Shown: positions 1 to 4,798 of the stretch, piece by piece
Layout: each line of letters opens with the position of its first letter
Numbering within the stretch: the first letter of the stretch is position 1
NCBI GenBank assembly: GCA_020444065.1
Contig: JAHLLQ010000002.1
Location: 1 to 64,000, forward strand
DNA from: a bacterium
GTDB taxonomy: Bacteria; Sumerlaeota; Sumerlaeia; SLMS01; JAHLLQ01
DNA length: 64,000 nt
Direction: 5' to 3'
Translations under genes and position numbers: made by a program
The notes under the pieces: model-generated
The model's input: the letters and a program-made list of their open reading frames with translations, nothing else
Told to the model about the DNA's origin: nothing
Databases searched by the model: none

Positions 1-378
1 GTTCCGTGTGGCCTTCCATGACGCGGAGGCAGCGGCCCGAGTCGACATCCCAAAGGCGGATGGTGTTGTCAACGGAGCCGGAAATGGCGCGGCGTCCATC
101 AGGGCTCCACGAGACGCTCCCGACGCGTTCCGTGTGGCCTTCCATGACGCGGAGGCAGCGGCCCGAGTCGACATCCCAAAGGCGGATGGTGTTGTCAACG
201 GAGCCGGAAATGGCGCGGCGTCCATCAGGGCTCCACGAGACGCTCCCGACGCGTTCCGTGTGGCCTTCCATGACGCGGAGGCAGCGGCCCGAGTCGACAT
301 CCCAAAGGCGGATGGTGTTGTCAACGGAGCCGGAAATGGCGCGGCGTCCATCAGGGCTCCACGAGACGCTCCAGACGG
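1..378. repeat. 126-bp tandem repeats encoding WD40 blades
   Basis: Three consecutive 126-bp units start at 1, 127 and 253. The first two are identical over their whole length, and the third differs only at its last few bases (near 373 and 378). A more divergent first blade begins at about 379. 126 bp is 42 codons, exactly one WD40 blade, so gain or loss of units keeps the reading frame. The array continues past the left edge of the window. Confidence 0.95.
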
Positions 379-865
379 GTTCCGTGTGCCCCAGAGATCG
401 CAATTCGACAGCGGGCTCATCTTCGATCGATGCACCCCACGCGCCCCGTCCAGCCGATGGCGGGCGGCAGGCATTGGCGAGGCGCATGTATTCCTCTTCG
501 CGGTTCGCACTGCGCCAATCAGCATACAGAAATTGCCCCAATGACCCCTTGATCGGCGCATCGTCGAGTCGTAGCGGGATGAATCGCCGTTCCTTGTTCA
601 GTGGATCACGGAAGCGAAACGTATAGGATTCTAATCGAGCCCAATCCGACCCAAACGCGTTGGCCGACATACAGAATATCAGAACCCGCGAATGCTCCAG
701 CCCATGCTCGATCTTGGATGGAATGCTATCCGCCAGACCGATCTCCCATTCGTCAAACCACACACTCAAGCCATCATCCCGAAGGCGCTCTGCCAGGGGG
801 CGAACGATTGATTTGTCCTGTGAGCTGTGGCTGATGAAGACGTCGTACTGGAAAGCATCCGACAT
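1..865 (-). CDS. TIR domain-WD40 repeat protein (3' end beyond window)
   Basis: Read on the minus strand from ATG 863-865, with a GGAGGA ribosome site about 10 nt upstream, and open to the left edge (288 codons in the window). Residues 5-130 look like a bacterial TIR domain: YDVFISHSSQDK near the N terminus, a BB-loop-like segment at about 32-48, and a SDWARLE stretch in which E79 sits where TIR NADases carry their catalytic glutamate. A linker follows, then WD40 repeats of 42 residues (GHTE..VGSVSWSPDG...DNTIRLWDV). Four repeats are visible and more must lie outside. TIR domains of this type often cleave NAD+, and TIR-WD40 proteins are known among bacterial immunity-like proteins. NAD+ cleavage triggered by a ligand on the propeller is inference. 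The gene is not paired with any recognised defence gene in the window. No C-terminal domain can be seen because the gene is cut. Confidence 0.88.
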   Translation of the reverse strand, partial: MSDAFQYDVFISHSSQDKSIVRPLAERLRDDGLSVWFDEWEIGLADSIPSKIEHGLEHSRVLIFCMSANAFGSDWARLESYTFRFRDPLNKERRFIPLRLDDAPIKGSLGQFLYADWRSANREEEYMRLANACRPPSAGRGAWGASIEDEPAVELRSLGHTEPVWSVSWSPDGRRAISGSVDNTIRLWDVDSGRCLRVMEGHTERVGSVSWSPDGRRAISGSVDNTIRLWDVDSGRCLRVMEGHTERVGSVSWSPDGRRAISGSVDNTIRLWDVDSGRCLRVMEGHTE

Positions 866-1075: not shown

Positions 1076-4000
1076 TCAACTGCACCCCGTTGTCCCACCG
1101 CAGGTGTCGCACTTGAGACAGGTACCGTTACGCACGAGAGTGAACGAGTAGCAGTTCGGGCACGGGTCGCCTTCGTAGCCTTTCAGCCGGGCGATACGTA
1201 CTTGCTCCTCGCGGGTGATGGTCGCTGTGGCAGTAGCAGGTGCAGGTGCAGGAGCTGGAGCCGGAGCAAGGCGCGGGGACGGTGCGACAGTATCCGCGGC
1301 CGCGGCACCCGAAGAGCTGCCGGAACCGGAACCAGAACCGGAGCGGGAAACGGGCGTCTCGGAGCTTGCGGCCGTCTTTACCTCGGGCGGGAACGGGAGC
1401 ATGTGTTCGCTACGGGGTGGACGGTGCCGCTGGCCGCGGAGTTTTTGGGACTCCCGCGCGTCGACGATCCGTTCGCTCACTACTTCCTCGTCGTCGTATT
1501 CCGCCGCTTCGTTCTGCAGCGCATCGTGCCGCAGCTCTTCCGGCGAAACATGGGCGAGGTCGTAGCGATTCAGATAGCTGATCGCCAACTCGCGGAAAAT
1601 GTAGTCGATGATTGATGTGGAGCGTTTGATGTACGGATTTCCCCGCACCGATCCACTCGGTTCGAATCGCGTGAACACAAACGCGTTCACGAATTTCTCC
1701 AGCGGCACACCGTGCTGCAGACCCAGCGACACGGCGATGGCGAAGCAGTTCATCAGCGAGCGGAACGCCGCGCCTTCCTTGTGCATGTCGATGAAGATCT
1801 CGCCCAGCGTCCCGTCTTCGTACTCGCCGGTGCGCAAGTACACCTTATGCGGGCCGATGGTGGCCTTCTGCGTATAGCCGCTGCGTCTCAGAGGCATGCG
1901 CCGGCGTCGCGACAGGTAGCGATGCACAACGCGTTCGGCAATCTTCGGAATCTCGACTGTCCGAACCGCCTCTTCGATTTCTTCTTCATCGTCCAGGTCT
2001 TCCATCAGATCGGAAACCGAGCTCAAAGGTTGGCTCAGCTTCGAGCCGTCGCGATAGAGCGCGTTGGCTTTAAGCATCAGCTTCCACGACATCATGTACG
2101 CGTCGCCGATGTCTTCGACCAGCGCATCGTTCGGCATGTTGATCGTCTTGCTGATCGCGCCGCTGATGAACGGCTGGGCCGCGGCCATCATTCGAATGTG
2201 CGACGGGTAATCCAGGAAGCGCTTGCCGTACTTGCCGCACTTGTTCGCGCAGTCGAACACGGCCAGATGCTCTTCCTTCAGATCCGGCGCGCCTTCGATC
2301 GTCATCCGGCCGCAGACGTAATCGTTTGCTTCGTCGATCTCTTCGCGCGTGAAGCCCAACGCCTCGAGCATGTTGAAGGACCAATCGTTCAACTGCTCGT
2401 CGGTGAAGCCCAGGTGGTGGCGGCAATTCTCTTCGCCGAGCGTCCACTTGTTGAAAATGAAGCCCAACTCGAACGCGCTCGCCGCCTGCTTCTCCACCGC
2501 ATCGATCATCTCGGCGGTGAAGCCCTTCTCGCGCAGCGCCGCCGGGTTGACATGCGGCGCGCCTTCCAGCGTCAACGTTCCACGCGCGTAATCGATGATG
2601 CGCTTGGCCTGCTCCTCCGAGTAGCCCAGCCGCGTCAGCGCGCGGGGCACGCTCTGGTTGATGATCTTGAAGTAGCCGCCGCCGGCCAGCTTCTTGAACT
2701 TCACCAGCGCGAAGTCCGGCTCGATGCCGGTCGTATCGCAATCCATCAGCAGACCGATCGTTCCGGTTGGTGCGATCACCGTCGTCTGCGCATTGCGATA
2801 GCCGTGCTCTTCGCCGAGCCGCAGCGCCTCATCCCAAGCCTTGCGAGCCGAATCCAGCAGGTCCGCGGGGCAATACTCCGGATCGATCGCCATCGGCTTG
2901 ATCGTGAGGCCTTCGTAGTCCGCTGCCGGCGCGCTGTGCGCGGCGCGACGATGGTTGCGAATCACGCGCAACATCGCATCGCGATTCTTCTCGTAGCCCG
3001 GGAACGTCCCCATTTCGCCGGCCATCTCGGCGCTGGCGGCATACGAAACGCCCGTCATCAGCGCCGTCACCGCGCCGCAGATCGCCGTGGCCTCGGGGCT
3101 GTTGTACGGAATGCCCAGCACCATCAGCAGCGTGCCGAGGTTCGCGTAGCCCAGGCCGAGCGTGCGGAACTCGTAGCTCAACTCCGCGATGCGCTTGCTC
3201 GGGAACTGCGCCATCAGCACGCTGATCTCCAGCGTGATCGTCCAGATTCGGCAGGCATGACGGAAGTCCTCGATGCGGAAACGTCCCGTTTTCTCATCGA
3301 TGAATTTCATCAGGTTCAGCGACGCGAGGTTGCACGCCGTGTCGTCCAGGAACATGTATTCGCTGCACGGGTTGCTGGCGTTGATCCGGCCGCTGTTCGG
3401 GCACGTGTGCCATTCGTTGATCGTCGTGTCGTACTGCAGGCCCGGATCCGCGCAACTCCACGCCGCGTAGGCAATCTGCTGCCACAATTCGCGCGCCTTC
3501 AGCGTCTTGCGGGGCTCGCCCTTCACGCGCTCGACCAGGTTCCAATCGCTGTCGCTGTCGACGGCCTGCAGGAACGCATTCGTCACGCGCACCGAGTTGT
3601 TCGAGTTCTGGCCGCTGACCGTGTAGTACGCTTCGCTGTTCCAGTCGGTATCGTATTCGTCGAATTCGATGCCCTTATAGCCCTGGCGGGCCAGTTGGAT
3701 CACGCGCTGGATGTAATTCTGGGGAACGCCCGCGCGAGCCGCTTCGCGCGCCGCCTTCTTCAGACGCTGGTTCGCGCGCGGATCGAAACGATTGCCGTTC
3801 AGGCTCGCATCGCCCGGCTCGTGGCAAGACGTCATGATTTCGTTCAGGTGCTTGCGGCACAGCTTCGACCCCAGGACCAGCGCGGCCACCTTCTGCTCCT
3901 CGTGAACCTTCCAGTTCACGAACTGCTCGATGTCCGGATGATCGACGTCGAGAACGACCATCTTTGCCGCGCGCCGCGTCGTGCCGCCGCTCTTGATGGC

Positions 4001-4798
4001 GCCGGCTGCGCGGTCGCCGATTTTCAGGAAACTCATCAGGCCGCTGGACTTGCCGCCGCCGGAGAGCGCCTCGCCCTCGGCGCGCAGCTTCGAGAAGTTA
4101 CTTCCCGTGCCGCTGCCGTACTTGAAGACGCGCGCCTCGCGCGTCCACAGATCCATAATGCCGCCTTCGTTCACCAGATCGTCGGAAACGGACTGGATGA
4201 AGCATGCGTGCGGCTGAGGCCGTTCGTAGGCCGACTTGCTGCGCATGGACTTGCTGGACTTCGGATCGACGTAGTGATGTCCCTGCGCCGGTCCTGTGAT
4301 GCCGTAGGCCCAGTGCAGGCCCGTGTTGAACCACTGCGGGCTGTTCGGAGCCGCCATCTGCTTCGCCAGCATGTGGCAGTTCTCATCGTAGTACGCGCGG
4401 GCATCTTCTTCGGTGTCGAAGTAGCCGTGCTTCCAGCCCCAATACGTCCAGCAGCCCGCCAGACGGTGGAACACGGCGCGAGTGTCGTTCTCGCCAGCCG
4501 TGTGCTGGTTGGCGGGCAGGTCCGCCAGGCGCTTGTCGTCCGGCACGTGGCGCTGCAGCCAGGTCGGGACGTCCTTCTCCGAGACGGGCCGCGTCGCCAC
4601 CGGGACGCCCGCCTTGCGGAAGTACTTCTGCGCCATGATATCTACGGCGATCTGGCTCCAGTGCTCCGGGACCTGAACGTCCTTGGCCTCGAACACCACC
4701 GAACCGTCCGGATTGACGATTCGGGAGGAGGCCGACTTGAACGGGATACCGGCATAGGGATCCTGACCGGTCCTCGTGAATCGGCGACTGATTTTCAT
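1076..4798 (-). CDS. nrdJ: Adenosylcobalamin-dependent (class II) ribonucleotide reductase
   Basis: A 1240-residue protein that reduces ribonucleotides to deoxyribonucleotides using a cobalamin-derived thiyl radical. The glycyl/thiyl barrel carries an NPCSE motif at 476-480, with Cys478 in the radical cysteine position, and the [19 protein letters not shown] region typical of the large bacterial NrdJ group. After the catalytic domain comes a low-complexity linker rich in Gly-Ser and then Ala-Pro (about 1145-1190). The last 28 residues are a cysteine-rich CxxC...CxxC...GCS tail, which in this family shuttles reducing equivalents or binds zinc. The ATG at 4798 follows a GGGGGT ribosome site. 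The gene stands alone, with a long 5' region (see the 9-mer array) and its own terminator. No cobalamin riboswitch core was recognised upstream. Confidence 0.95.

What the first reader, a model, noticed from the sequence alone, without database searches (positions are those of the whole stretch)
1..865. TIR-WD40 gene with an apparently intact NADase site
The gene at the left edge encodes a TIR domain with E79 in a SDWARLE motif, followed by a WD40 propeller. This combination resembles NLR-like sensors in which a repeat domain recognises a trigger and the effector depletes NAD+. The gene is near a replication-linked enzyme, not in a known defence island, so it could be a stand-alone system.
Basis: partly seen in the sequence, partly recalled or inferred. 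Interest (0 to 1): 0.78.

Follow-up and report, generated by a model that had tools for sequence, protein, structure and literature searches.

The report
Two-weapon ROCO-type bacterial immune sensor
The truncated gene at the window's left edge is one end of a single large protein that appears to combine a WD40 sensor, a GTPase switch related to human LRRK2, and two cell-damaging enzymes (an NAD+-destroying TIR domain at one end and a DNA-cutting nuclease at the other). It is probably a suicide-type immune receptor, and the same layout occurs in unrelated bacteria and archaea.

Summary
The contig begins at base 1, inside a 126-bp near-identical WD40 repeat array. The rest of the gene lies on another contig end (C8). 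The two ends share an exact, in-frame 40-bp overlap. The C8 part encodes the last WD40 blade, a Roc (Ras-like) GTPase, a divergent COR-like region, a four-Cys zinc ribbon and a C-terminal DUF4365/DREN nuclease. Intact one-ORF homologues with the same order (TIR–WD40×7–Roc–COR-like–ZnR–DUF4365) occur in Methanoperedens, Methanothrix and Phycisphaerales, so the join is sound. E79 aligns with the catalytic Glu of bacterial TIR NADases and is invariant in the family. The nuclease D…QxK triad is intact. Cyanobacterial relatives carry other C-terminal effectors, so the scaffold swaps effectors. Only 1 of 40 genomes in the phylum has the gene, and its neighbours vary from host to host. Most likely it is a stand-alone abortive-infection receptor: the propeller senses, the Roc GTPase switches, and assembly activates NADase and nuclease. 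AP-GTPase–COR conflict systems were predicted before, with LRR sensors and a C-terminal effector; the WD40, dual-effector form is a new variant. No function has been tested.

The parts
1..865 (-). 5' part (288 codons) of the TIR-WD40-Roc-COR-like-ZnR-DUF4365 gene; cut by the end of contig C2, continued on contig C8 (G000:C8:189232-191448, minus strand, = L003:17784-20000)
   Evidence: ORF; contig end; exact 40-bp in-frame overlap with the C8 end; intact one-ORF homologues L011, L012, L015
877..881 (-). GGAGG, plausible ribosome-binding site 11 nt upstream of ATG 865
   Evidence: sequence; inference
482..841 (-). TIR domain (residues 9-128), Pfam TIR_2
   Evidence: Pfam 5.4e-27; AF2 model pLDDT 80 with best fold matches AbTir/BtTir
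629..631 (-). codon of E79, predicted catalytic Glu (W75xxxE79 motif; W75 codon at 641-643)
   Evidence: alignment to AbTIR, BtTir and PdTIR; invariant in A2
1..394 (-). first three WD40 blades (and the start of a fourth) of a probable seven-bladed propeller; 126-bp near-identical units that broke the assembly
   Evidence: Pfam WD40; TRF period 126, 99%; unit differences 0 and 2 of 126
1076..4798 (-). neighbour, not part of the system: class II (B12-dependent) ribonucleotide reductase NrdJ
   Evidence: Pfam

Best explanation
A single-gene, dual-effector immune receptor built on a ROCO-like GTPase switch. Shown from sequence: TIR, WD40 array, Roc GTPase with intact P-loop (GDTSAGKT) and switch II (DFGG), a following COR-like region, a four-Cys zinc ribbon, and a DUF4365/DREN nuclease with intact D...QxK. 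Inferred: the WD40 propeller recognises an invader molecule or infection cue. Binding releases it from the Roc-COR core, as GTP swings the LRR away in bacterial CtRoco. The switched protein oligomerises, which brings TIR domains together to destroy NAD+ (or make a cyclic ADP-ribose signal) and DUF4365 domains together to degrade nucleic acid without specificity. The cell dies or goes dormant before the invader spreads. Near-identical blades allow fast change of the sensor.
For: TIR family, fold and catalytic Glu. Roc: Pfam 9e-17, phmmer to Roco structures 4wnr, 3dpu and 6hlu; profile-profile alignment collinear with canonical LRR-Roc-COR proteins through COR and zinc ribbon over 427 columns, 99%. 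Nuclease: DUF4365 1e-14; SPARDA DREN structures 9qbq/9qbp at 1e-9 and 6e-7; fold search top ten all SPARDA, though the model is weak. The conserved D and QxK match residues D41/Q60/K62 (PMC12205087) and Q62/K64 (PMC10810196), which abolish or impair DREN activity when mutated. Same architecture in three intact archaeal/planctomycete ORFs. Effector swapping on the same scaffold in cyanobacteria. Patchy spread: 1 of 40 genomes of the phylum. Both effector types are activated by multimerisation in short-Argonaute systems (PMC12205087). Near-identical WD40 blades and disrupted propellers are associated with prokaryotic innate immunity (PMC9218822).
Against: No functional data. Pfam COR-A/COR-B do not match, and the COR-like region alone finds no PDB chain and is not significant by hhalign. 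The gene is split across two contigs and its blade number is unknown. Immediate neighbours are housekeeping genes, not a defence island. No relative found in viral contigs or phages, and none at full length in plasmids.
Confidence: 0.62

Rival explanations
1. Same architecture, but the TIR does not kill by bulk NAD+ loss. It makes a small ADP-ribose-type signal that acts on another protein, or the TIR serves mainly as an assembly domain, while the DUF4365 nuclease is the true effector.
For: TIR domains in Thoeris are signal makers (PMC12578639 abstract). The Armatimonadota relative L014 keeps WD40-Roc-COR-like-DUF4365 but has no TIR, so the nuclease can work without it.
Against: The catalytic Glu and Trp are invariant, which argues against a purely structural TIR. 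No conserved signal-receiving partner gene lies nearby. Cyanobacterial relatives have TIR as the only recognised effector.
Confidence: 0.2
2. A regulated programmed-cell-death or stress/self-recognition protein, not aimed at phages; the trigger is internal damage or kin mismatch.
For: AP-GTPases and WD40 receptors also act in cell death and self-recognition (PMC8195603; fungal WD40 NLRs, PMC12222747 abstract). The gene is not in a classic defence island.
Against: Patchy, cross-domain distribution and effector swapping fit an arms race better than a fixed developmental role.
Confidence: 0.12
3. The join of C2 and C8 is an assembly coincidence; the window gene is a TIR-WD40 protein of unknown end and the Roc-nuclease part belongs to another WD40 gene.
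For: Both contig ends stop inside a repeat, so the link is not covered by a single contig.
Against: Exact 40-bp in-frame overlap. L009, the closest relative (69% over Roc-ZnR, 71% over the TIR), has TIR-WD40 and Roc-DUF4365 halves adjacent and in frame. Three intact full-length ORFs. The C8 repeat is the only other place in the genome matching the gene.
Confidence: 0.03
4. A decaying or non-functional repeat gene.
For: The closest relative L009 has an in-frame stop inside its propeller; young propellers are often disrupted (PMC9218822).
Against: All catalytic motifs are intact in the own gene; both visible parts are open; the start and a ribosome-binding site are present.
Confidence: 0.03

Closest known systems
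Prokaryotic AP-GTPase (Roc)-COR conflict systems predicted by Kaur et al. 2021 (PMC8195603)
   Same: Roc-type GTPase, COR position, fast-evolving repeat sensor, variable effectors including TIR, proposed counter-invader role
   Different: There the text describes N-terminal LRRs and one variable effector C-terminal to COR; here the sensor is WD40 and two effectors flank the switch, with TIR at the N-terminus. The supplementary tables could not be read, so an unlisted example there is not excluded
Bacterial Roco proteins (CtRoco, MbRoco2) and LRRK2
   Same: Roc GTPase followed by a collinear COR-like region
   Different: WD40 instead of LRR in front, diverged COR, added TIR, zinc ribbon and nuclease. 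A 2019 review placed all prokaryotic Rocos in the LRR-Roc-COR group with little known of their physiological role (PMC6337361)
SPARDA DREN (DUF4365) and SPARTA TIR effectors of short Argonautes
   Same: Same two effector families; the nuclease has the same D/Q/K active site. Double-effector REase+TIR APAZ proteins exist (PMC10810196)
   Different: No Argonaute or APAZ; a GTPase switch and propeller replace the guide-based sensor
WRAP-type STAND/TIR proteins with near-identical WD40 blades (PMC9218822)
   Same: Recently amplified WD40 propeller linked to TIR and an NTP switch
   Different: The switch is a Roc GTPase in the same chain, not a STAND ATPase; a nuclease is added

Membership tests
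TIR NADases (TIR_2) | TIR domain above Pfam cutoff | tested here: met
   95 bits against cutoff 28; fold match to AbTir/BtTir
TIR NADases (TIR_2) | catalytic Glu in the WxxxE position | tested here: met
   E79 aligns with the AbTIR catalytic Glu; invariant in 10 family TIRs
TIR NADases (TIR_2) | NAD+ hydrolysis | not testable with these tools
   needs purified protein
ROCO proteins | Roc GTPase domain with intact G motifs | tested here: met
   Pfam Roc 9e-17; GDTSAGKT, DFGG and SAK conserved
ROCO proteins | COR domain directly after Roc | tested here: inconclusive
   collinear hhalign to LRR-Roc-COR over 427 columns at 99%, phmmer extends into COR of 4wnr/3dpu; but no Pfam COR-A/COR-B match and COR-only profile not significant
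DUF4365/DREN nucleases | DUF4365 domain with D and QxK active-site residues | tested here: met
   Pfam 1.1e-14; D and K invariant, Q in 7 of 8; SPARDA structures by profile
DUF4365/DREN nucleases | nuclease activity on assembly | not testable with these tools
   needs assay
NLR-like (STAND) receptors | STAND/NACHT/NB-ARC NTPase between effector and repeats | tested here: not met
   the only NTPase is a Ras/Roc GTPase
Thoeris | ThsB-type TIR with an adjacent ThsA | tested here: not met
   ThsB models match only in part; adjacent genes are NrdJ and RNase E/G
Short Argonaute systems (SPARTA/SPARDA) | APAZ domain and short Ago partner | tested here: not met
   no such domain in the protein; neighbours unrelated
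AP-GTPase-COR conflict systems (Kaur 2021) | Roc GTPase plus repeat sensor plus conflict-type effector in one chain | tested here: met
AP-GTPase-COR conflict systems (Kaur 2021) | LRR sensor and C-terminal effector only (as described in the text; not necessarily defining) | tested here: not met
   WD40 sensor, and an N-terminal TIR besides the C-terminal nuclease

The most novel reading that the evidence does not exclude
A distinct class of prokaryotic immune receptors shared by archaea and bacteria: WD40-sensing ROCO-like GTPases whose zinc-ribbon scaffold takes interchangeable effectors, and whose dual-effector branch couples NAD+ destruction and nucleic-acid degradation in one chain under one GTP switch, with a rapidly renewed near-identical propeller as sensor. 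It would be among the first defined roles for a prokaryotic ROCO-type protein.
Probability: 0.45. Interest if true: 0.76.

Novelty: new variant of a known kind. Interest (0 to 1): 0.64.

Why it matters
ROCO GTPases are studied intensely because of LRRK2 in Parkinson's disease, yet a 2019 review says very little is known of what prokaryotic ROCO proteins do in the cell (PMC6337361). This family ties a ROCO-like switch to two effector domains of known immune type and gives a direct test: does GTP-switching activate NADase and nuclease upon phage infection? Intact homologues from Methanoperedens, Methanothrix and Phycisphaerales can be tested at once. It also shows how short-read assembly breaks such genes inside identical repeats, so they may be undercounted.

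Tried and rejected
Viral-contig scans with one protein and with an alignment found no relative. Phages: no match. Empty-site test: NrdJ and RNase E/G lie on different contigs in the sister genomes, so no clean empty site could be shown. DUF4365 model was weak (pLDDT 63), so its fold matches are used only as support for the profile match. COR assignment by Pfam, PDB profile and COR-only hhalign failed; only the collinear full-length comparison supports it. Rejected: NLR/STAND, Thoeris and short-Ago membership. Considered and rejected: artefact of reading a WD40 array in one of several open frames; antisense ORFs exist over the repeats, but the Pfam and homologue evidence fixes the frame.

Full report
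What is in the window. A minus-strand ORF starts at ATG 865 and runs off the left edge. It encodes a TIR domain (Pfam TIR_2, 95 bits, residues 9-128) and three WD40 blades. The blades are a tandem array with a 126-bp period at 99% identity; two units are identical and the third differs at 2 of 126 bases. E79 lies in DWARLE. It aligns with the catalytic Glu of AbTIR and the equivalent residue of BtTir and PdTIR by single-sequence and profile searches. W75 and E79 are among the 12 invariant columns of ten family TIRs, including C-terminal TIRs of cyanobacterial relatives. An AlphaFold2 model of the window TIR (mean pLDDT 80) matches AbTir, BtTir, TLR1 and PdTIR best.

The gene is cut by the assembly. 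The window is G000:C2:1-64000, and base 1 is the end of contig C2. The only other match in the genome is the last 84 bases of contig C8. C2's end and C8's end share an exact 40-bp overlap in the same codon phase. On C8 the ORF continues for 738 codons (L003:17784-20000, minus strand).

What the missing part encodes. One last WD40 blade, then a Roc/Ras GTPase (Pfam Ras 4e-18, Roc 9e-17), then a C-terminal DUF4365 (1e-14). By sequence the Roc part matches archaeal and bacterial Roco structures 4wnr, 3dpu and 6hlu. P-loop GDTSAGKT, switch II DFGG and SAK are kept. Four cysteines in two CxxC pairs follow (C509, C512, C537, C540 in C8-fragment numbering), nearly invariant in the family: a probable zinc ribbon.

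COR status. The roughly 280 residues after Roc fit a COR domain in place and size, and a profile-profile alignment with two canonical LRR-Roc-COR proteins is collinear through COR and zinc ribbon (427 columns, 99%). But Pfam COR-A and COR-B do not match, and the region alone is not significant against PDB or by hhalign. I call it COR-like.

Nuclease. A profile of eight family members finds SPARDA DUF4365 structures (9qbq 1e-9, 9qbp 6e-7). The weak model (pLDDT 63) still has only SPARDA chains in its top ten. D610, Q630 and K632 (C8-fragment numbering) correspond to the D41/Q60/K62 active site shown by mutagenesis in NbaSPARDA (PMC12205087) and to Q62/K64 in TmuRE (PMC10810196). D and K are invariant in the family; Q is replaced by Leu in L013 only.

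Relatives. One scan of GTDB contigs gave 13 loci. L011 (Methanothrix), L012 (Phycisphaerales) and L015 (Methanoperedens nitroreducens) encode TIR, seven WD40 blades (by motif count), Roc, COR-like, zinc ribbon and DUF4365 in one intact ORF. L009, a Planctomyces MAG 69% identical over Roc-ZnR and 71% over the TIR, has the same order with an in-frame stop in the propeller. L010 and L013 are cut at their 5' ends. L014 (Armatimonadota) has WD40-Roc-COR-like-DUF4365 without TIR. Cyanobacterial relatives have WD40-Roc-COR-like-ZnR with a C-terminal TIR (Calothrix and others) or with a metallophosphatase followed by a CHAT-like region (Nostoc C057; the CHAT reading is mine from the sequence). A tree of the Roc-to-ZnR part groups the DUF4365 members apart from the cyanobacterial/Poribacteria ones (96/96), mixing archaea and several bacterial phyla. 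Within the window's own phylum only 1 of 40 genomes has the gene. This points to horizontal spread and effector exchange on a fixed scaffold.

Context. Flanking genes differ in every locus and look like housekeeping genes, so the protein probably works alone. In the home genome the neighbours are class II ribonucleotide reductase and RNase E/G. A strong PADLOC candidate pair, PDC-M25A/B (5e-127, 6e-83), lies about 14 kb further on C8.

How it most likely works. Shown: domain content, intact catalytic residues, conservation. Inferred: the propeller senses; the Roc GTPase is the switch. In CtRoco GTP swings the repeat domain away by about 135 degrees (PMC11052575). The two effectors are of kinds that fire on assembly: the DREN nuclease needs tetramers, and the SPARTA NADase is activated by tetramerisation (PMC12205087). 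So one switch could release NAD+ destruction and nucleic-acid degradation together, giving abortive infection. The trigger is unknown.

What is known already. Kaur et al. 2021 predicted prokaryotic AP-GTPase-COR conflict proteins with LRR sensors and at least 24 kinds of C-terminal effector, TIR among them (PMC8195603). A 2019 review placed all prokaryotic Roco proteins in the LRR-Roc-COR group and found little known of their role (PMC6337361). Near-identical WD40 propellers next to TIR/STAND proteins were linked to prokaryotic immunity, with frequent disruption (PMC9218822). REase+TIR double-effector proteins are known for short Argonautes (PMC10810196). New here, as far as the papers held show: a WD40 sensor, two effectors flanking one Roc switch, and conservation from archaea to bacteria. 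I found no paper describing it, but Kaur's supplementary tables could not be read, so I rate it a new variant of a known kind.

Limits. The join is inferred, though strongly; blade number is unknown; function is untested; the collection scan used two short peptide patterns, so relatives are undercounted.

Noticed in passing
L003:1561-3497 (G000:C8:173009-174945), outside the window: Two-gene PADLOC candidate defence pair PDC-M25A (ATPase, 5e-127) and PDC-M25B (6e-83), about 14 kb from the ROCO-type gene.
   Followed up: partly
L009:6723-9968: Closest relative (Planctomyces MAG, 69%) carries an in-frame stop inside its WD40 propeller; the two halves are adjacent in the same frame. Could be real decay or a sequencing error.
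   Followed up: partly
L008:5041-9372 (Nostoc sp. C057 plasmid): Same WD40-Roc-COR-like-ZnR scaffold with a metallophosphatase and a C-terminal CHAT-like region as effectors; annotated only as metallophosphoesterase.
   Followed up: partly
L036:2224-5001 (Spirosoma linguale plasmid pSLIN03): Canonical LRR-Roc-COR protein whose C-terminus reads like a different PD-(D/E)XK nuclease, by eye only.
   Followed up: no
L037:1329-5860 (Nostoc sp. UHCC 0926 plasmid pn3): A Roc-GTPase relative next to a MoxR ATPase and near a NACHT gene, resembling the vWA-MoxR AP-GTPase systems of Kaur 2020.
   Followed up: no
L018:5979-9908: Poribacteria relative has a run of masked or unknown bases inside its WD40 array and frame changes at both ends, probably another assembly failure in near-identical blades.
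   Followed up: no
window:8004-8774: Apparent DNA adenine methyltransferase-like ORF (contains DPPFF) among housekeeping genes; not examined.
   Followed up: no
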